NCBI RefSeq assembly: GCF_010993775.1
Contig: NZ_WOTO01000040.1
Span: forward strand, 1-64,000
DNA length: 64,000 nt
Source of the DNA: Fodinicola feengrottensis
GTDB lineage: Bacteria; Actinomycetota; Actinomycetes; Mycobacteriales; HKI-0501
Direction: 5' to 3'
This document shows, piece by piece, positions 40,945 through 58,193 of this stretch; position 1 is the first letter of the stretch; each line of letters begins with the position of its first letter. The position numbers and the translations under genes were made by a program. The notes beneath the pieces were generated by a model. That model saw only the letters and a list, made by a program, of their open reading frames with translations, did no database searches and was not told the origin of the DNA.

Positions 40945-42390
40945 GTGAAGAGCACCGTGGAGACCTTGAGCCCGACCCGTGTGAAGCTGTCGGTGGAGGT
41001 CCCGTTCGAGGAGCTGCAGCCGAGCCTGGACAAGGCGTACAAGCAGATCGCGCAGCAGGTGGCGATCCCGGGCTTTCGGCGAGGCAAGGTGCCGGCCCGG
41101 CTGATCGACCAGCGGGTCGGCCGCGCGTCGGTGCTCTCCGAGGCGATCAATGACGCCATCCCAGTGCAGTACAGCGCGGCGATCCAGGAGCACGACGTCA
41201 AGGTGCTCGGCCAGCCCGACATCGACGTCACCAAGCTCGAGGACGGGGACGAGCTGAGCTTCACCGCCGAGGTGGATGTCCGCCCGGAGATCACGCTGCC
41301 GGTGTTTGACGAGCTCAAGGTCACCGTCGACACGCTGGATGTGACCGACGCGGACGTGGACGAGCACATCGACCTGCTTCGTGACCGGTTCGCGGTGCTC
41401 AAGAACGTCGAGCGGGCCGCGGCCGAGAAGGACTACGTGTCCATCGACCTGGTCGCCAAGATCGGCGGCGAGGAGGTCGAGGGCGGCAGCACTTCGGGTC
41501 TGTCGTACGAGGTCGGTACGAACCAGATGCTGGACGGGCTGGACGAGGCCATCATCGGGCTGACCGTCGACCAGGACAAGACCTTCAGCACCAAGCTGGT
41601 CGGCGGTGACCACGCCGGCGAGGAGGCCGAGGTCACGGTCACTGTCAAGGGCGTCAAGGAGAAGGACCTGCCGGCGCTGGACGACGACTTCGCGCAGACC
41701 GCCAGCGAGTTCGACACCATCGACGAGCTGCGCACGGACGCTCGTACGCGGGTCGAGCGGAACAAGCGGCTGGAGCAGATCGTGGCCGCCCGCGACGGCG
41801 TGTTGAAGGCGCTGATCGAGGCTGTTGAGGTGCCGCTGCCGGAGAGCGTGGTGCTCTCCGAGCTGGATTACCGCAAGCAGGCCATTTCCCGGCAGCTGGA
41901 GCAGGCCGGCGCCACCATCGCGCAGTATCTGGCCGCTGAGAGCAAGACCGAGGAAGACCTCGACGCCGAGCTCAAGGAGGCGTCGCAGGACGCCGTACGC
42001 AACCAGTTGGTGCTGGACGCGGTGGCCGACAGCGAGGAGTTGGGCGTCACCAACGAGGAGCTGACCACCGAGGTCGTGCAGCGGTCCGCGCAGATCGGCC
42101 GGGAGCCGCAGCAGTACGCCGACGAGCTGGTCAATTCCGGGCAGCTGCCCTTCATGATCGCCGACATCCGCCGCGGCAAGGCCCTCGCGCTGGTGCTGGA
42201 CAAGGCCACCATCGAGGACTCCGCCGGCACCAAGATCGACCTCGGTGCGGCCATGCGGGAAGCGGACGCGGATGCGCATGCCGGCCACGACCATGCCGAC
42301 CACGATCATGGCGATCACGACCACGCTGACCACGACCATGCTGACCACGACCATGGCGATCACGAAGACGACGACACCGACGAGGCGTAG
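40945..42390 (+). CDS. tig: Trigger factor
   Basis: An intact 481-residue ribosome-bound chaperone with peptidyl-prolyl isomerase domain. The N-terminal ribosome-docking signature is IPGFRRGKVPARLI, the FKBP-like PPIase domain covers about residues 155-245 (YVSIDLVAKIGGEEVEGGST; LDGLDEAIIGLTVDQDKTFS), and helical arms follow. The last ~36 residues form an unusual His/Asp repeat tail, HAGHDHADHDHGDHDHADHD and so on, that could bind divalent metals. GTG at 40945 with TACGTAC upstream gives no strong RBS. It heads the cluster tig-clpP1-clpP2-clpX, but its 157 bp to clpP1 include a GAGCTGGGC/GCCCGGCTC hairpin. Confidence 0.95.
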   Translation: MKSTVETLSPTRVKLSVEVPFEELQPSLDKAYKQIAQQVAIPGFRRGKVPARLIDQRVGRASVLSEAINDAIPVQYSAAIQEHDVKVLGQPDIDVTKLEDGDELSFTAEVDVRPEITLPVFDELKVTVDTLDVTDADVDEHIDLLRDRFAVLKNVERAAAEKDYVSIDLVAKIGGEEVEGGSTSGLSYEVGTNQMLDGLDEAIIGLTVDQDKTFSTKLVGGDHAGEEAEVTVTVKGVKEKDLPALDDDFAQTASEFDTIDELRTDARTRVERNKRLEQIVAARDGVLKALIEAVEVPLPESVVLSELDYRKQAISRQLEQAGATIAQYLAAESKTEEDLDAELKEASQDAVRNQLVLDAVADSEELGVTNEELTTEVVQRSAQIGREPQQYADELVNSGQLPFMIADIRRGKALALVLDKATIEDSAGTKIDLGAAMREADADAHAGHDHADHDHGDHDHADHDHADHDHGDHEDDDTDEA

Positions 42391-45367: not shown

Positions 45368-46584
45368 GTGGCGTCTGAGATGACGGCTGTCCGCAAAATG
45401 CCGTTGGCGCCATTGGTCGGATGTTTCGGCGTCTTCGTGACTATGGGCCTGCTGGTTTCCACGCTGGGCCCGCTGTTGCCGGGGATCCGCGCCGAATTCG
45501 GGGTCGGACCGCAAGACGCCGGGCTGTTGGTGTCCGCGGTCCCGCTCGGGTGCATCGCGGGCACGCTGATCGTGCTTTTTTTCCTCAACCGGCGCTTTCA
45601 CGCCCGGGTGTTGCTCGCCGCGACCGGCGTGACGATGGCGGTCGGTCTGGTCGGCGCGGGCCCACCACCCCCAGCTGGTGGCTGGTGTGCGGGTCGCTGG
45701 TGATCGTCGGGATGGGCTACGGCGCGGCGACCGCGCTGGTCAACGGCGTGATCGCGGTCGCGTACGGGAGCAGGTCGGCCGGCTTGCTGAACCTGCTGAA
45801 CGGCGTCTTCGGAGTAGCCGCGGTGGTCGGCCCGTTCGTGGTGTCCGGGCTCGCCGGCGGCCTGCCGGGCCTGCCGCCGCGCTTTGCCTACCTGCCGTAC
45901 GTGCTGGTCGCGATCTTCTCGGCGGTGTTGGTCAGCCGGCTGCCGACCGGGTTTTCCACCATCCCGGAGGGCGCCGCTGCCCCCGAGGTGCTGGCCGACT
46001 CTCCTTCGCGGGGGCCCGTTAGGAACACGCAGTTGCAGTCGTACGGGCGGCTGGCGCTGGTGGCCGCGATGCTGGGCTCTTACGTGGCCACCGAGGTGGC
46101 CGCGAGCAGCTTCGCCACCACGCACCTGCTGGCCGCCGGAGCGGACGCGGGCACGGCCGTACGCGCCACGTCCCTGTTCTATGTGGGGCTGGCCGGTGGC
46201 CGGCTGCTGGTCGTACCGGTGGCGGCCCGGATCGGCGCCGGCCGGCTGATGCTCGGCTGCGCCGGCCTCGCGGCGGGTCTGCTGGTGGTGACGTGGGCGC
46301 TGCCGCTGGGCGGCTTCACGTACCTTCTCGTCGGTGCCGCGATGGGGCCGATCTTTCCGACCGCGCTCGCGTGGGTGAGCGGGCAGGGCCTGGGCCGGGA
46401 CGCGCTGCCGATCGCCCTGACCGCCGCCAACATCGGCGGTCTGATCCTGCCGCCTATCATCGGCGCGGTGATCGGTGCGGTCGGCGCGACCGCGGCCCCG
46501 CTGCCGATGGCCGCGTCGGTCGCCATTAGCGCTTTGCTGATCAGCTATCTCCTCTTCAGTGCGCGTCGGAGTTCTGTCAAGTAG
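45368..46584 (+). CDS. MFS transporter
   Basis: About 405 residues, twelve membrane segments in two halves. The first half has LVGCFGVFVTMGLLVSTLGP and the loop FLNRRFHARVLL between TM2 and TM3; the second begins at LALVAAMLGSYVATEVAASS and ends ALLISYLLFSARRSS. A frameshift near 45663 in CCCACCACCCCC interrupts TM3-TM4, after which SWWLVCGSLVIVGMGYGAAT continues. The substrate is unknown. The type is drug- or sugar-efflux like. It lies between clpX and the lanthipeptide precursor, 146 bp before it; a role in export of that peptide is possible but there is no direct evidence. Confidence 0.85.
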
Positions 46585-46730
46585 TAGATCTCCCGGCCGG
46601 CCCCGATGAGTTCCGCTGACATTTGTCAGGGTGAGGCCGGATCTGGTCAGTGGTCTGATTTTTTCCGGGAGATTCGGATTTTCCGCGTACGTTTTCCGGT
46701 GTCCACAATTTTTTCTCACCGGAGGTGCGA

Positions 46731-46910
46731 ATGTCCACCATTGAACTCGTGCGGGCCTGGAAGGACGAGGACTACCGACTCAGCCTGTCGCCCGACGCCG
46801 TGCCAACCCACCCGGCCGGTGTCCCGCAGTCCGAGCTTTATGCAAGTCAGGCGCTTTCGTTGAATACCTGCGAGTTCGCGACCAGCTGTTTTCGGATTTG
46901 CAGCAACTGA
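46731..46910 (+). CDS. lanA: Class II lanthipeptide precursor (mersacidin-type leader)
   Basis: A 59-residue precursor. The first 30 residues, beginning MSTIELVRAWKDEDYRLSLS and reaching HPAG, match the leader pattern of the mersacidin/lichenicidin family. The C-terminal LSLNTCEFATSCFRICSN has three cysteines (47, 53, 57) with Thr and Ser at 43, 46, 51, 52 and 58 available for dehydration and thioether rings. The usual GG cleavage site and ELxxVxGG are absent; SQA at 39-41 could be an alternative cut. ATG at 46731 has GGAGG at 7 bp. A hairpin and then lanM follow. The product would be made in the cytoplasm and exported. No LanT or protease is in the window. Confidence 0.82.
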   Translation: MSTIELVRAWKDEDYRLSLSPDAVPTHPAGVPQSELYASQALSLNTCEFATSCFRICSN

Positions 46911-46927
46911 GCAGGCCGCGAAAAAAC

Positions 46928-46962
46928 GTCGCATTCCTCGCCGGTCCGGCGAGGAATGCGAC
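46928..46962 (+). terminator. Hairpin between precursor and LanM genes (attenuator)
   Basis: GTCGCATTCCTCGCCGG and CCGGCGAGGAATGCGAC are exact reverse complements, separated by one base, giving a very stable stem. It starts 17 bp after the precursor stop and ends 36 bp before LanM ATG. A partial terminator here would give more precursor than enzyme mRNA. Confidence 0.8.
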
Positions 46963-46998
46963 ATTTATCAACTGTCAAGGAAAACCTGGAGTGCGCCC

Positions 46999-49900
46999 AT
47001 GAAGCTCGACGGTTTACGGTCGGCGGCCGGCCGAGCTGTGCCATTGGTATTCCGCGGCCCGGACAATGGGCGGGTGAGTGACGATCCGGACCAGCTGGCT
47101 CGCGCGGACCGCAGGCTCACCCGCTGGCGGCAACAGGAACCGTTCGACAGCACCGAAAAAGACTGGTACGGGAGGCGCCTGGCGGCCGTCGGCCGCGACG
47201 TTGCGAGCGTACGCGCGCAGCTCGCCGGTGCTGTCCCGGCGTCCACCGAAACCTGGATCGACTGGCTGGTCGAATGTTTCGAGAATCCCGCGCCGCCGGT
47301 CGACATTCCGAAAGAGCACGTTTTCGCCACACTGGTGGGTCCGTTGGTCGCGTCGGCCCGGGACCAGCTCCGAGCCGCTGTGAGCCCGCTCTTGTCGCAC
47401 TCCGTCGCGGAGCTTTTCCTGCCGGCATTGACGGCCGAGCTGCATGCGATGGCGGCTCGTACGATGGTGCTGGAGCTGAACGTCGCCCGCGTCACCGGGC
47501 AGCTGACCGCGGACACTCCGGGTGGGCGCTTCGAGGAATTCGTCGTACGGCTTCGCGATCGCGAGTTCGCGGTGGCACTGTTGACCGAATATGTCGTGCT
47601 GGCTCGCCAATTGACGCTTGCCACGCAGGCCTGGCTCGACAACCAGACCCGATTGCTCGCCCGATTCGTCGCCGACCTGCCGGCGCTGACCACGACTTTC
47701 GGCGCTGACGTTGGCCAGCTGTCCACTGTGGAGGTGGGGCTCGGGGACCGGCATCGGGGTGGTGCCACGGTGGCTCGGCTGGGTTTCGAAAGCGGCTTGC
47801 GGCTGCTGTACAAGCCGCGCCCGGTCGGTGTCGACGTACATTTCCAGCAGGTGGTGGATGGGCTCAACCAGCACCTGGAACATCCGTTGCGGCGGCTGGA
47901 AGTGCTGGCTGGGGACGGCTATGGGTGGATCGAACACGTGGAAGCCGCGCCCTGTGCGGATGAAGCGGAGCTGAGCCGGTTCTACTGGCGCTGTGGGTGC
48001 CTGGTGGCGCTGACGTACCTGCTCGAGGCCACTGACTGCCATGCGCAGAACCTGATCGCGGCCGGCGAGCACCCGGTGCTGGTCGATCTGGAAACGCTGC
48101 TGCAGCCAGAATTCCCTGATCCGCCAAAGAAGCTGTCCGACGGCGAGCGACTCGCCTACGCCGGGATCGCGCATTCGGTCGTACGGTCCGGCATGCTGCC
48201 CTATCGCTCGTGGGCCGAATCGGATCACGGCGGGGTGGACCTGTCAGCGCTGGGCTGGCGGCCGGGCGAGCGGATCCCACGGCCCAGCCCGGAACTAACG
48301 GGCGAGTGGACCGACGAAATGCATGTCGACTACGTACGGAATGCTCTCCAGCCGACCGGCGCTCAGCCATCGGATCGGCCAGTGGATCTGTTGGACCAAC
48401 TGGACGCGCTGGATGCGGGGTTCACCGCCGCGTACGAGATTTTCTCTACACACCGCGAAGAGCTCCGGCCCTTGCTGATCGCCTTCGGCGCCGACGAGGT
48501 CCGTTTGTTGCGCCGGGACACACTGGAATACGGCTCGTTGCTGGGCGCCAGCTTCCATCCGGATCTGTTGCGGGACGCGCTGGATCGGGACCGGCATTTC
48601 GACCGGTTGTGGGCGCTGGCCGCGCGGGACCAGACCGCGTTGCCTTTTGTCGCCGACGAACAGCATGACCTGTGGAACAACGACATTCCGGTGTTCGCGG
48701 TGCGGACCGATGGTGTCGACGCGGTCGGAGGCACCGGCGTACCCATTCCGATGGCGGTCACCGCCGCGCCGCTTTCCACTGTGCTCGCCAAGCTGGACGC
48801 GCTCGGCCCCGCCGACCTCGACCGGCAGCGCTGGCTGCTCCGGTCCGCGGTGTCGGCGGGCTCGCCCGGAGCGGCCAGTGAGGCGAACACGGCACGCTAC
48901 CCGTACGCGCGTGGTACCTCGGACAAGGTGAAGACGCGGGCGATCGACCAGGCCGCCGCGATCGCCGACGAGTTGATCCGCCGTGCGTACGCGGGGCGGT
49001 CGGACCTCGCCTGGAGCGGTCCGACGCTGACCCCGCACGGTGGTTGGGTGGTCGTGCCGCTCGGGCCGGACTTTTACAGCGGCACGGCCGGGATCGCGCT
49101 TTTTCTCGACACCGTGGCCGGAGTTACCGGCGAGCGGCGGCACCGAGCGGCCGCGTACGGTGCCCGCGCCACGCTGGAGCTGCAGATCCCGCGCCGAGCC
49201 AATCGGCTGACCGGCGGCCTGGACTCGGCCGGCGGGCTGCTCTACGCCCTCGCCCGGCTGGCCGGTGACTGGCCGGCCGCCACCGACCTGGCGGGTCCGG
49301 TGGTCGAGCGGATCGCCGCGCTCACGGCCACCGATGAGACGTACGACGTGGTGGGCGGCTCTGCCGGAAACATTGGCGGTCTCGCTGCTTGGTACGCCGT
49401 CGCGCCAAGCGCGCGCGTACGCGAGGTCGTACGCGCCTGCGCCGACCACCTCGTCGCCACCGCCGCCGCGCAACCCGTGGGCGTCGGCTGGGTGCCGGAG
49501 CCGCTGCGCTCGCAGGTCAGTCGACCCCTCGCCGGCTTCGGACATGGCGCCGCAGGCATCGCGTGGGCCCTGTGCAGCCGCCGATCTGCTCGGATCGCCG
49601 TTGTACGCGCGAACCGCGGTGGCGGCGCTGGCGTACGAGCGGACGCTTTTCGTTCCGTCGCTGGGAAACTGGCTGGACGTACGCGCCGAGGACGAGCCCC
49701 CCGCGGTCGCCTGGTGCCACGGCGCCACCGGGATCGGACTGTCCAGAATGGACATTCGCGGCACCCTGGACGACCCGGTCTTGGACACTGAGGTGCAGGC
49801 CGCGGTGACCGCTGTGGAGGCTGGCTTCGGACGTAACTTCTCGCTCTGCCACGGCGATCTGGGCAACCTCGACCTGCTGTTGTCACTTCCGTCGTACGAC

Positions 49901-50077
49901 TGTGCTCCGGCGGCGGCAGGCATCCTCGATGGCCTCGACGCGTACGGCTGGCTGTGCGGCCTCCCGCGCGGGGTGCGGCTGCCGTCCCTGATGACCGGTC
50001 TCGCCGGCATCGGCTACGGCCTGCTCCGCCTCGCCGCCCCCACCACCGTGCCCTCCGTCCTCACCATGCGCCTGTAA
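46999..50077 (+). CDS. lanM: Class II lanthipeptide synthetase LanM
   Basis: A bifunctional enzyme of about 1025 residues that phosphorylates and eliminates Ser/Thr and then cyclises cysteines in the precursor. The N-terminal dehydratase (DUF4135) has RLLYKPRPVGVDVHFQQVVD, EATDCHAQNLIAAGEHPVLV and LVDLETLLQPE. The C-terminal LanC-like cyclase has the zinc sites VAWCHGATGIGLSR and SLCHGDLGNLD. The frame shifts near 49575 between GIAWALC and AAADLLG. ATG at 46999 has GGAG upstream. It lies directly after the precursor. Only one LanM is present, so one precursor fits a single-peptide lantibiotic. Confidence 0.95.
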
Positions 50078-50187: not shown

Positions 50188-52166
50188 ATGGCAGCAGGTT
50201 CCACGACAGCTCTGCACGGAATGCCACAGCCGGACGACACCTTCGTCAATCGTGGGGGCCCGCTGGCTGCGATACGCCGGGTGCTGGAGGACGCGAAAGC
50301 TGCCGGCCAATGTGCGTACGTCCATGTGTATGGGCCGAGCGGGGTCGGCAAGTCGCAGCTGATCTACCAGTTGGCTCGGCAGTTGGACACCGAATTTCCG
50401 GACGGCGCCTGGTGTGTCGAGCTGGGCAGTGTCGAGGGCGCGGTGCTCGCCCGGCCAGCCGCCTACCTGCGCCAGTTGTTGACGTATATGGGCGTGGACG
50501 CAGCAACGCAACGCTGACCGATGACGTGGGGCTGCTTTCCACCCGGTTGAGGGAAAAGGTCGCCACCAGGCGAGTGTTGATCGTGCTGGACGGCGTGGTG
50601 GGGCCGGCGATCGCCGAGGTGTTCCGCTTCCACGCGCCGGGAAGTCTGGTGGTGCTGATCAGCCGGGACCGCTGGGATCGGCTGCCCGGCTCGTACGTGC
50701 CTTTTGAGATCCAGCCGCTGAAAGACCAGGATGCGGCGGAGCTCGCCGAACTCCGGTTCCGCCGAAGGGGGATCGCCTGTACGCCGCGGGTCGCTGACGC
50801 GATCGTCCGCGGCACCGGTGGAATGCCGCAGCTGATCGCGGTGGGCGCCGAGACGCTGGCCGGGCTGCCGGCCGGCTCGGAGGAACTCGTTCTGCGGTTC
50901 GTGGACGCGAAACTGGTGAAAGACTGGGGCCGGGTGTTCCGGCAAATGTACGACTCCGCCTACGATCAGTTGTCCACAGCCGGAAAACGCGCGTACCGGC
51001 TGCTCAGCCTGCATCCATTGCCGGAGTTGGAGTTTTCGGTGGACGCCGCGATGGCGTTGCTGGGCACCGACTTCGTGACCACTGTCAACGCGTTGACCGA
51101 ACTGCGAAACAAGAATTTGCTGACGACCGCCTCCGAAGGCTACCGGTTCCACAGCAGCGTCTGGCGCGACGCGGCCACTCGTCGCGACGAGGTCGATTCG
51201 CCGGACGTGCAGCAGGAAGCGGTCGGCAGGATGCTCCTGTGGTATCTGGAAAAGGCTGTCTCGTACGAGCTGGTGCTGTCCGATCGCTGGCGGGTGCTGG
51301 AGATTTTCCAGCGGGTGGCGGCGGCGTGCGATCTCGCCGATCGGGTCGCCCGGGAGCGGACCCGCGAGGTCGCGCTGGCGTGGCTGGAGCGGAACCTGGA
51401 AATCCTGGTGCAGCTGGTGTTGCTGGCCCACGACCGTGGGTTTGACCGGGAAGCAGTGGCATTCGGCGAGGCCCTGTGGTCGGTCCTGCATCTGCACAAC
51501 CATTTCGACAACTGGCGGACAGTCCATGAAGTGGCGCTGAAATCCGCCGAGCGAGCGAACCTCCCGTTGCCGCTGCATGCATCTGTCGCTGCAGCTCGCG
51601 ACTCTGGAGCTTCGGGAAGGAAAACTCGACCGCGCCGAGACGCTTGTCGATACGGCGTATCGGATCGCTGTCGACCAGGACCACGTTTTCGGGCAGCAGA
51701 GCGCCCTGGAGTGGAAGGCGCGAGTGCTGCTTGAGCGGCAGGCGTACGAAAGAGCGGTAGGTTTCTATAGCCAGTCGATCGACCTGGCTCAGGCCCGGCT
51801 GACCGATGCTGAAGGGCGTGGGCGCGCTGTCGCGCTGGGGCACTTCCACCGCGGCCGGGCGTATCACCGCTGGCGTGATCACCTGCCCGAGTCGTTCGCC
51901 GATCTGTCGATCGCGGCGACCTTCTTCCAGGACAGCGCGGATCGCGACAACTACGCCAAAATCCTGCACGAGTACGGCGACGCCTTGCGGCACGGCCAGC
52001 GAGCCCGCGAAGCGATCGCGCCGCTGGAAATGGCGCTTTCGTTGTTCCTGGCGGAAAAGTCGCTGGTGAGCGCGCGTCGGTGCTGCAATCCCTCGCTCGT
52101 ACGGCGCAAGCTCTGGGCGATCACCCGGCCGCCCAGGAATATCTCCGCCGAATGCACACCATTTAG
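50188..52166 (+). CDS. STAND/NB-ARC-type ATPase with TPR-like repeats
   Basis: About 660 residues in four frames. An NB-ARC-type ATPase comes first: Walker A VYGPSGVGKSQLIYQLAR, Walker B-like VLIVLDGVVGPAI, sensor-like LVVLISRDRWDR and the GMPQLIAVGAETL motif. After a winged region (LLSLHPLPELEFSVDAAMAL), TPR-like helical pairs follow: LREGKLDRAETLVDTAYRIA, ERQAYERAVGFYSQSIDLAQ, GQRAREAIAPLEMALSLFLA and LGDHPAAQEYLRRMHTI. Frameshifts lie near 50505, 51575 and 52078. There is no DNA-binding domain as in SARP regulators. It begins 110 bp after lanM in the same direction and may regulate or sense the pathway. Role unproven. Confidence 0.75.
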
Positions 52167-53782: not shown

Positions 53783-54435
53783 AAGTGACGTTGTCCCGGC
53801 GCGCACGTAGTCATGGGTCTGGCGTTCGGGGACACCGGGCAATGACCGGCAGCACCGGCGCGGTGCGGTCCAGCGCCTGGATCTGGGACTTCTCATCCAC
53901 ACACAACACCAGCGCGTTCTCCGGCGGGTTCAGGTAGAGACCGACCACATCACGGACCTTGTCCACGAAGAACGGGTCGGTGGACAGCTTCCAGAACTCC
54001 ACCACGTGCGGTTTGAGACCGAACACGCGCCGACCCGCGACACCGCGGTCTGGCTCATCCCGACCTGCTTCGCCATCAACCGCGTTGACCAGTGCGTTCC
54101 CTCGTCCGGCGGCTGGTGTTCCAAGGTTTGGATGATCACGTTCTCCACCTGCGCATCAGTCACCGCCCGCGGCCGACCCGGACGCGCCTCGTCACTGAGC
54201 CCACCTAACCCAGCCTCGACAAACCGGTTCCGCCACTTGGCGACCGTCTGCGGTCGGGTCCCCAACTCCCGGGCCACCACCTGGTTCTGCGCCCCATCCG
54301 CACACACGCCAGCACAATCCGCGCCCGAAACGCCAACGCCTGAGCCGTTTTCCGACGCCGCGCCCACGACATCAACACCTCCCGATCAGCCGCAGAAACA
54401 ACCAACTCCCGACGAGGACGCCCACGACCAGCCAT
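53783..54435 (-). pseudogene. IS630-family transposase remnant
   Basis: About 210 codons in three or four frames. The N-terminus MAGRGRPRRELVVSAADREV and HTH region VVARELGTRPQTVAKWRNRF resemble IS630 transposases, with the first catalytic Asp in [18 protein letters not shown]. After PVLPV the frame changes again to [19 protein letters not shown] and stops resembling the family near 53783, directly at the TetR promoter. The second Asp and Glu of the DDE site are missing, so it cannot work. Ends or inverted repeats are not clearly recognisable. Confidence 0.8.
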
Positions 54436-54784: not shown

Positions 54785-56030
54785 TTATGCGGCGAGTTGG
54801 TTGATTCCGCGGATGGGTCTTCGTTCAGGGTCCCGGTACGCGGGTGGGATGAATTCGACGATTCCGTCGATGATGCGTACTTCCCAGTCGCTATGATGGA
54901 TCAGTCGATGGCAGGCATCACACAGGAGCACGCAGTTTTCCAGGCAAGTATCGCCACCATCGGCCCAGTGAGTGACGTGATGGCCACGGCACCAGCGAGG
55001 TGGTCGACCGCACCTGGCGCAGCCTTTATCCCGCGCTATGAGTGCTTTTCGTAGGTGCGCGGGAATGAGTCGTTCGGTGCGGGCAACATTGAGCGGTACG
55101 CTGTTCCTGCCCAGAAGCATCGGGGTGATGTCCGCGTCGCAGGCGAGCCTGCGGCCGGATTCTGGAGAGATAGCGATGCCGGTGTGCGCGTACGCGACAC
55201 CGAGACGTTCCCGGAGCAGTTCCCAGTCCAGTCCAGGGTATAGTGAGGTGAGGCCGCTCCTGCCCTTGGACGGGGAGTTTCCCGGAGTCCGCAACAAGAT
55301 TAAGCGCCTCGGCGAGCGCGTCGCCGTTGCGTTGGGAGACTGACCGCTCATCTCGGTGGCCGTCTTGGGTGGGGTGGGGTTTGGCCAGTGGGCTGAGGAT
55401 TTCGGTGAGCAGGGTGCCCGTTTCGCCGTCGAAGGAGCCCCGGAAATTCAACCGCCCATCACGACCGGTGTGTAGGGACAGTTCGCGGCGCGGTTTCTCG
55501 TTCTCCCGTTCGGGCGGTGCTGGGCCGTCGGGGTCGAGGTGGTCGTGGATGCGTTGGCCAAGTTCGACGAGGCGGCGGGCGGGGTGATGTTTCGCGTGTT
55601 CCACCAGGGAAGCCTCGGCACCTTCGCGTTCTTCGATGTTCACCCTGGCGGGGAGCCTGTTCACGATCCCCAGAATCGTGTCGATGTGGGAATCCGCGAG
55701 TTCACCTCTGCGCATAGCGTCACTGACAAGACCAAGTTTGGGTACGAGGGTTTCACCGGTGAGTGCTTGGCTGCTGCACAGGTTCAACGCCCGTTTCAGG
55801 CGACGACCAGCCTCGGTCGGGGACAGCAGGAGGTTATCTTGCAGTAGCCTCATGGTGTTGTCATGCCCGAGTGCCTTACCGACCCGGTTCCGATGAATCG
55901 CCGCGACAATATCCAACGCCCGCGCCTGCCGCCGCCGAATGTCCTGCTCGGCTGCACGCAGCAAATCGACCAACTGCCGGGGTTTACACATCCAGAGCTC
56001 TGGATCTGCGACTTCATCGCCGGCGGCCAT
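54785..56030 (-). CDS. DUF222/HNH endonuclease (13E12-repeat family)
   Basis: About 415 residues. The N-terminal DUF222 domain has QLVDLLRAAEQDIRRRQARA, LSPTEAGRRLKRALNLCSSQ and SHIDTILGIVNRLPARV. The C-terminal HNH module reads CARCGRPPRWCRGHHVTHWA, DGGDTCLENCVLLCDACHRL with its Cys pairs and catalytic His. Many near-identical copies occur in actinobacterial genomes, where they behave as mobile selfish genes. The frame shifts near 55270. ATG at 56030 is at the canonical place; the last residue codons are INQLAA. Confidence 0.87.
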
Positions 56031-56274: not shown

Positions 56275-57993
56275 TTATGAAGAGATTTCCAGGGTGTTTT
56301 CGACGCCACCCAAGGTGACCGCGACGGTGGCGGGCAGCGGACCCGTGAGGAGCAGGAAGTAGGCGGCGGAGGCGGCGGCTTCGGGAGGGAATCCCGGCGG
56401 AGTGTGGACCTTGAGGATGGCGTCGTTTTCGCGCGTACGTACGAAACAGACGTCGTCGTCGATCAGCGCGGCGAGATAGCAGCCGGGGTGATGAACAAGC
56501 AGATCGGCCAGGATGTCCGGCGTGCTTCCCTCGACCTCGCCGGCGCGTCGGAAGACCACTTCGGCGTTGCCGAGCAGTGAACGGACCGGATGCTCGGCGT
56601 GACAACACAAATGTGCGCCAGCTGGCGGCGCCGACAGTGGCAGTCCACTGTAGACGTCGGCGGGCCGGCGGGTCAGCCCTACGACAGAGCCCGCCGCTGA
56701 GCCGCTGACAAAGGTGGCTGCGATGTCCGGCCTTGTCAATATACCGGGAAAGTCGGCTGGAAGAATCCGTACGGGCGGCTCGTGGTTTGGCTCCGGCAAG
56801 GCCATCAGCCGGTAGAAAAGGGCACGCAGGCGTACGAGCGCGGCGCCGGGCTCGGACGTGATCAGATCGCTGACGTCTTTCCATTGCCCTGGCCGGAACT
56901 CGTCTATCGCGCGGTCGATCTGGGCGTCCAGCGGCAGCGTCCGGTCGAGTCGGGGAGCGGACCGCCCGAGCAGGTCGACGGGTGAGCCGCCGGCCACGTC
57001 CGCGACCGGGAACGCGGCCAGCAGGATCGGCTTGTCGAGTGCGGTCGCATATGTGGTCACTGCGCCGTGATCGCCGATCACGCAGTCCGCCGCGATCAAC
57101 GCGGCCCGCCATCCTTCCTGTGGCGGGACCAAAATCAGCCCGGCTCGCTGACAGTCGGCCAGCCAACTGTGCACCTGCCAGCCGCCGTGTCCGTACCAGA
57201 GATGCGGGTGCAGGGCGGCGGCCACCCGATAGTTGTCCAGCGGCAGGTCCGCCATCACCTGCCGGAAAAGATCAGGCCAGGTCCCGAAAAGCGAGTGCTG
57301 CCACCAAGTAGACGAGAGCAGAACGAGCCGCTGGTGTGGACGTACGCCCAACGCTTTACGGTATCTGCTGCGATATTCGGCGCTCGCCGCGATCCGGTCG
57401 TGGCACGGATCGCCGATGACGGTGGCCACGTCGACGGCTTGCGGGACGGCATCGGCCAGTCGCTGGAGTTGTTCCCGATGGGAAAGGCCAACGGCGGCTG
57501 CGAAGACCTGTCCGTCGTGCAAAAGCCACTGCGGCGACAGCCCATAAGTCGCCCTAGGGACCCGGGGACCGGGACCCGGGACCCGGGACCCGGGACCCGG
57601 GACCCGGGACCGGGACCCGGCCGTATTCTTAGTATATCCTATACCATGTGAGAGCAGGACAAGTGGGGCATTGATTTCGTGCAGGCTGCCGCTGTGCGCG
57701 GCCGCGATCGCGAGGTCGAACTCGGTCTGCAGTGCTTGCGCCCAGGGAATTGTCGCGGCGCCGAGAGCGGCCAGCACCTCGGCCACTCCGGCCCGTACGG
57801 CAGAGGTGCCCGGAGTGGTGAAAACCACCTGGATCCGCAGGTCGGCGTCGAAAACCGGCAGCACGTCCGCAAGCCGCGTCGCCGCGGTCACGGTGTGGAC
57901 GATCACCAGCACGGTCCGTGCTGGCTGAATCGTCCGCCAGCGGGGCGCCTGGAGCCCGACCGGCACCTTCTCCCAGGTGTGGTCGGCGGGCAC
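56275..57993 (-). CDS. Conserved protein with glycosyl/glycerophosphotransferase-like fold
   Basis: About 572 residues, intact. It matches a family of actinobacterial proteins I know only as uncharacterised: PARTVLVIVHTVTAATRLAD, VFTTPGTSAVRAGVAEVLAA, LVLLSHGIGYTK, GLSPQWLLHDGQVFAAAVGL and the GVRPHQRLVLLSSTWWQHSL block resemble CDP-glycerol glycerophosphotransferase or glycosyltransferase-like nucleotide-binding halves. No catalytic function can be assigned. Between YTKNTA and RATYGLS it holds a low-complexity stretch encoded by a heptamer repeat (57557-57620). GTG at 57993 (PADHTWEKVP) with AGAAAGG upstream is preferred; the longer frame from 58074 runs through the nested hairpin. Confidence 0.7.
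   Translation of the reverse strand: MPADHTWEKVPVGLQAPRWRTIQPARTVLVIVHTVTAATRLADVLPVFDADLRIQVVFTTPGTSAVRAGVAEVLAALGAATIPWAQALQTEFDLAIAAAHSGSLHEINAPLVLLSHGIGYTKNTAGSRSRVPGPGSRVPGPGPRVPRATYGLSPQWLLHDGQVFAAAVGLSHREQLQRLADAVPQAVDVATVIGDPCHDRIAASAEYRSRYRKALGVRPHQRLVLLSSTWWQHSLFGTWPDLFRQVMADLPLDNYRVAAALHPHLWYGHGGWQVHSWLADCQRAGLILVPPQEGWRAALIAADCVIGDHGAVTTYATALDKPILLAAFPVADVAGGSPVDLLGRSAPRLDRTLPLDAQIDRAIDEFRPGQWKDVSDLITSEPGAALVRLRALFYRLMALPEPNHEPPVRILPADFPGILTRPDIAATFVSGSAAGSVVGLTRRPADVYSGLPLSAPPAGAHLCCHAEHPVRSLLGNAEVVFRRAGEVEGSTPDILADLLVHHPGCYLAALIDDDVCFVRTRENDAILKVHTPPGFPPEAAASAAYFLLLTGPLPATVAVTLGGVENTLEISS
57557..57620. repeat. Heptamer microsatellite inside the 56275-57993 gene
   Basis: Tandem GGGACCC (CCCGGGA) units, with two imperfect units (GGGGACC and GGGACC), about nine copies. 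Seven is not a multiple of three, so a change in copy number shifts the reading frame. In the current frame it encodes SRVPGPG-like repeats. Confidence 0.85.
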
Positions 57994-58035
57994 GGTCGCG
58001 GGCCTTTCTGCTGGACGAGGTCGATTCCACCCGAA

Positions 58036-58193
58036 GGGCGTCTGGAACCTGTGGCGGCCGATAGTCGAGCCCAAACGCCGCCTACCGGCACCGGTCGATG
58101 ACCCACCATAGCTTTGCTATTTGGGTCATCACCCGGCACCGGTAGGACGACGTGTGGATCTCGACTTTCAACCACCACAGGTTCCAGACGCCC
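58036..58193. repeat. Nested 158-bp inverted repeat (cruciform-like)
   Basis: The outer arms GGGCGTCTGGAACCTGTGG (58036-58054) and CCACAGGTTCCAGACGCCC (58175-58193) are exact reverse complements. Inside, CCTACCGGCACCGG / CCGGCACCGGTAGG, then GATGACCCA / TGGGTCATC, then ATAGC / GCTAT around TTT also pair, so almost the whole unit can fold as one hairpin. It lies just upstream of the 56275-57993 gene start. Confidence 0.85.

What the first reader, a model, noticed from the sequence alone, without database searches (positions are those of the whole stretch)
46731..50077. Class II lanthipeptide locus with an unusual precursor
A 59-residue mersacidin-type leader protein precedes a full LanM. The core NTCEFATSCFRICSN-like end has three Cys and five to seven Ser/Thr, with a Cys-x5-Cys spacing equal to the CTxTxEC lipid II motif but not its residues. 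The leader lacks the GG cleavage site. No LanT or protease is visible. It could produce a new lantibiotic.
Basis: partly seen in the sequence, partly recalled or inferred. Interest (0 to 1): 0.75.

Follow-up and report, generated by a model that had tools for sequence, protein, structure and literature searches.

The report
Class II lanthipeptide gene pair
This actinobacterial locus encodes a small precursor peptide and the enzyme predicted to staple it with thioether rings; the peptide core is shared by at least six genomes and matches no described lanthipeptide that I could find, but the kind of system is well known.

Summary
A 59-aa precursor (46731-46910, ribosome site GGAGG) hits the mersacidin/lichenicidin leader family above its curated cut-off, and is followed by a LanM (46999-50077) whose dehydratase and zinc-cyclase motifs are all present. 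As written, the LanM is split by a frameshift near 49573-49577. clpX, the MFS gene and the TPR gene are broken too, so I read this as assembly error; the congener's LanM is intact. No Cys-39 peptidase (LanT) exists in this genome, the congener or Actinocatenispora rupis. I found five further precursors, in a congener, A. rupis and three members of its family. All share leader ...HPAG...E(L/I)Y... and core TC-x5/6-C-x3-CS, each beside a LanM. So it is a small conserved lanthipeptide family without the mersacidin lipid II motif. The constant unit is lanA-lanM only. The upstream MFS gene is not specific: it follows clpX in a related genus lacking lanA. Missing GG is not unusual: several other leaders of this family in the order lack it. 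Product, rings, export, leader removal and activity are unproven. Verdict: new member of a known kind (class II lanthipeptides), moderate-low interest; antibiotic and signalling roles both remain open.

The parts
46731..46910 (+). lanA: 59-aa class II lanthipeptide precursor; leader about residues 1-41/42, core about LSLNTCEFATSCFRICSN
   Evidence: TIGR03898 39.2 bits, cut-off 23.5; five relatives with conserved T46-C47, C53, C57-S58
46718..46724 (+). ribosome-binding site (CGGAGG) upstream of ATG 46731
   Evidence: sequence
46928..46962 (+). intergenic hairpin, 16-bp perfect stem, between lanA and lanM; probable attenuator or mRNA stabiliser, no T-run behind it
   Evidence: MFE -40.6 kcal/mol, z = -4.67, 0 of 200 shuffles as good; hairpins of unrelated sequence at the same place in relatives
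46999..50077 (+). lanM: class II lanthipeptide synthetase; DUF4135 dehydratase plus LANC cyclase, CHG-type; read in two frames (46999-49572 and 49577-50077) because of a frameshift
   Evidence: TIGR03897, PF13575, PF05147; 65% identical to the intact LanM of the congener; that relative matches LicM2 6st5 at 325 bits
49573..49577 (+). frameshift inside lanM, probably an assembly error
   Evidence: tblastn of two intact LanMs switches frame here
50188..52100 (+). STAND/NB-ARC-like ATPase with C-terminal TPRs (643 aa and intact in the congener), broken here; downstream partner only in this genus, role unknown, possibly regulatory
45392..46584 (+). MFS transporter, frameshifted here; neighbour of clpX, not specific to the lan genes
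   Evidence: 64% to congener; the same clpX-MFS order without lanA in G002

Best explanation
A two-gene class II lanthipeptide operon (lanA-hairpin-lanM) lying downstream of a conserved tig-clpP1-clpP2-clpX-MFS block. LanM binds the NHLP/mersacidin-type leader (VRAWKDEDYRLSL...HPAG), phosphorylates and eliminates core Ser/Thr (always-present candidates: T46, one or two residues just before C53, and S58), and closes up to three thioether rings on C47, C53 and C57. The leader is probably cut after the SQA/STG/AGG motif by a protease encoded elsewhere, and the 17-18 residue product leaves by an exporter other than a C39 LanT. Shown by sequence: precursor, enzyme, active-site motifs, conservation in six genomes, absence of C39. 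Inferred: modification, ring pattern, cleavage, export. Most likely role: a secreted bioactive lanthipeptide, antibacterial slightly ahead of signalling.
For: Leader and synthetase families. Catalytic motifs GDRH, YKPR, DCHAQN, VDLET, RRDT and cyclase WCHG/LCHG in the window protein and aligned in relatives; homology to LicM2 6st5 and CylM 5dzt. Precursors: congener 71-72%, A. rupis 57-58%, three further genomes about 52% identical, each next to a LanM, 50-65% identical where compared. Invariant T46 C47 C53 C57 S58. Hairpin between the two genes, z -4.8 to -2.8 in five of six. No PF03412 in this genome, the congener or A. rupis. The LanM here is the only full-length class II dehydratase hit in this genome and in the congener.
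Against: LanM is broken in this assembly, and the genome is 74.6% complete, so a missing transporter could lie in a gap; the congener at 100% makes that unlikely. No immunity gene or dedicated exporter is constant across relatives. No expression or mass data.
Confidence: 0.85

Rival explanations
1. The product is a lantibiotic that kills Gram-positive competitors by a target or binding mode other than the mersacidin CTxTxEC lipid II motif.
For: Leader family named for lichenicidin/mersacidin; C-x5-C spacing and short rigid core; LanM closest in PDB to LicM2.
Against: No LanFEG or other constant immunity gene at any of the loci; flanking genes differ: MFS/TPR, pentapeptide repeat, or FGE plus metallophosphoesterase with an FtsX-type ABC pair in two of three. 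Core conserved across genera rather than diversified.
Confidence: 0.45
2. The product is an intraspecies or developmental signal (SapB-like role, not SapB-like chemistry) rather than an antibiotic.
For: No immunity or LanT genes; two-gene unit; the same core motif kept in two lineages; a TPR/STAND ATPase, a kind of protein often regulatory, beside it in this genus.
Against: Not of class III like SapB; the TPR gene is absent from the other loci; no direct functional evidence.
Confidence: 0.35
3. In this organism the cluster is a pseudogene: LanM is truly frameshifted.
For: Frame changes at about 49573-49577.
Against: clpX and two more neighbours are frameshifted within 8 kb, and clpX is 94-98% identical to the intact congener gene on both sides of the break; completeness 74.6% fits an indel-rich assembly.
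Confidence: 0.08
4. The upstream MFS protein is the dedicated exporter of the peptide.
For: Directly upstream and co-directional in this genus.
Against: It follows clpX in G002, which has no such precursor, and no close homologue is found in A. rupis, G756 or G757.
Confidence: 0.12

Closest known systems
Mersacidin/lichenicidin-type class II precursors (TIGR03898, NHLP-derived leader) with CHG-type LanM
   Same: Leader family above cut-off; LanM with DUF4135 and LANC domains; closest solved enzyme LicM2
   Different: Core lacks CTxTxEC; leader ends SQA/STG/AGG and lacks GG in five of six members; no LanT
Roseocin family (Actinobacteria, PMC10027976)
   Same: NHLP-type leader, CHG-type LanM, actinobacterial
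   Different: Roseocin is a two-peptide lantibiotic with many rings, and its study describes lanA, lanM and lanTp as the minimal set; here one short three-Cys precursor and no lanTp
Cinnamycin/duramycin-type class II lanthipeptides (from my own knowledge)
   Same: Class II in Actinobacteria with leader removal not at GG
   Different: Unrelated core; no accessory hydroxylase or lysinoalanine enzyme seen next to lanA-lanM here (no dedicated search made)

Membership tests
Class II lanthipeptide biosynthetic locus | LanM with DUF4135 dehydratase and LANC cyclase domains | tested here: met
   PF13575 357 bits, PF05147 in two frames, TIGR03897
Class II lanthipeptide biosynthetic locus | Retained dehydratase catalytic motifs and Cys-Cys-His zinc ligands | tested here: met
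   GDRH, YKPR, DCHAQN, VDLET, RRDT, WCHG, LCHG; compared with the LicM2 alignment
Class II lanthipeptide biosynthetic locus | Adjacent precursor with recognised leader and Cys/Ser/Thr core | tested here: met
   TIGR03898 39.2 bits; core with 3 Cys
Class II lanthipeptide biosynthetic locus | Thioether (lanthionine) rings in the product | not testable with these tools
   needs expression and mass spectrometry
Mersacidin-type lipid II binding lantibiotics | CTxTxEC motif in the core | tested here: not met
   CEFATSC, CEHRSSC, CESYSSC, CNYASVTC
LanT (C39 bifunctional transporter) dependent class II systems | GG-type leader end and C39 peptidase gene | tested here: not met
   no GG in the precursor; no PF03412 in the genome, congener or A. 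rupis. The A. rupis precursor itself has AAGG
Lantibiotic | antibacterial activity | not testable with these tools
   no activity data

The most novel reading that the evidence does not exclude
A small lanthipeptide family with a conserved non-lipid-II core TC-x5/6-C-x3-CS, made by a bare lanA-lanM unit, matured and exported wholly by housekeeping proteins and acting as a conserved signal rather than an antibiotic.
Probability: 0.25. Interest if true: 0.5.

Novelty: new member of a known kind. Interest (0 to 1): 0.33.

Why it matters
It adds a tractable, single-precursor lanthipeptide family whose core is conserved between genera and differs from the known lipid II motif. If modified and active, it could reveal a new target; if a signal, it would extend non-antibiotic roles to class II. 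The lack of any C39 transporter raises a testable question about how such peptides are cut and exported.

Tried and rejected
MFS as part of the cluster: rejected, because G002 has clpX-MFS without lanA. Hidden C39 LanT elsewhere in the genome: none. Other precursors sharing the core across about 395-399 genomes each of the order and the class and 355 of the A. rupis family: only the six reported; the other hits that I read share the leader only, and their cores differ. Plasmids: only a Dolichospermum leader match. Literature: no paper in the held library contains the core or leader strings. Host as Fodinicola is my guess from the genus-poor family and genome size; a Fodinicola genome paper lists lanthipeptide clusters (PMC7232338), but identity was not tested.

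Full report
Observation. The precursor lies at 46731-46910 with a good ribosome site and is 59 aa. It scores 39.2 bits to TIGR03898, cut-off 23.5. The LanM starts at 46999 and matches TIGR03897, PF13575 and PF05147. One correction: the LanM frame breaks at 49573-49577 and continues in the next frame to 50077.

Frameshift. The congener G001 carries the same order tig-clpP1-clpP2-clpX-MFS-lanA-lanM-TPR with every gene intact. In the window clpX, MFS, lanM and TPR are each broken within about 8 kb, and the two clpX pieces are 98% and 94% identical to the intact gene. The assembly is 74.6% complete. An indel-prone assembly explains this better than decay; reads were not available.

Enzyme. The intact relative matches LicM2 (6st5) over 877 residues at 325 bits and CylM at 157 bits. 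The dehydratase motifs and the WCHG / LCHG zinc ligands are present in the window protein, read in two frames, and in four relatives. Two of those relatives (G756, G757) have small departures, RRDT to CRET and VDLET to IDHET.

Relatives. Close precursors occur in G001 (71-72%) and A. rupis (57-58%), and more distant ones (52%) in three other members of the A. rupis family, each directly upstream of a LanM. Invariant core residues are T46 C47 C53 C57 S58. The core motif is TC-x5-C-x3-CS, or TC-x6-C-x3-CSC in the distant group. Between lanA and lanM all six have predicted stem-loops of unrelated sequence; five are stronger than shuffled controls (z -2.8 to -4.8) and one is not (z -0.8). This fits the usual attenuation between precursor and enzyme genes, which is an inference.

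Surroundings. The MFS gene belongs to an older clpX-MFS block: G002, of another genus in the same family, has it without a matching precursor and without lan genes in that stretch. The TPR/STAND gene follows lanM only in this genus and is less conserved (39-45%) than LanM (62-66%). A. rupis has a pentapeptide-repeat protein upstream. The distant group has an FGE-like and a metallophosphoesterase gene upstream, and in two of three an FtsX-type ABC pair downstream. Nothing but lanA and lanM is constant.

Export and cleavage. No C39 peptidase is encoded in the window genome, G001 or A. rupis. Leaders end SQA, STG or AGG, so cleavage there by an unclustered protease is inferred. Several other leaders of this family in the order also lack GG, so this trait alone is not remarkable.

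Comparison. It belongs to class II lanthipeptides on every sequence criterion tested; ring formation is untested. It fails the mersacidin lipid II motif and the C39/GG criterion. The roseocin study describes lanA, lanM and lanTp as minimal genes and NHLP (TIGR03898) leaders with CHG-type LanMs (PMC10027976); a large survey reports that about a third of LanAs have GG and that TxTxEC is found only in class II (PMC7268733). The core strings occur in no paper held.

Verdict. Real, and a new member of a known kind; the role is open between antibiotic and signal.

Noticed in passing
40945-42390: Trigger factor with a long His/Asp-rich C-terminal tail (HAGHDHADHDHGDHDH...); the congener has a shorter HDHDHDH tail. 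Possible metal-binding tail.
   Followed up: no
53811-54435: Fragmented IS630-like transposase reading frames downstream of the lan genes (name from my own reading, not searched).
   Followed up: no
54785-56030: Frameshifted DUF222/HNH-type protein (PF02720 match).
   Followed up: partly
56275-58074: About 600-aa protein with no Pfam or NCBIfam match in its congener homologue (645 aa, 65% identical), conserved next to the lan region in both genomes.
   Followed up: partly
G000 contigs C42, C34, C1, C27, C16, C53, C13: Seven further contigs carry LANC-like domains, so this genome holds several other lanthipeptide-type or LanC-like loci.
   Followed up: no
L016, L017, L018, L054-L057: Precursors with a long Cys-rich core (GCCGGFTARETPCGSCGATCGGTTCGTCQTQSTCGLCTA) and AGA instead of GG at the leader end, nearly identical in many genomes of one family.
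   Followed up: no
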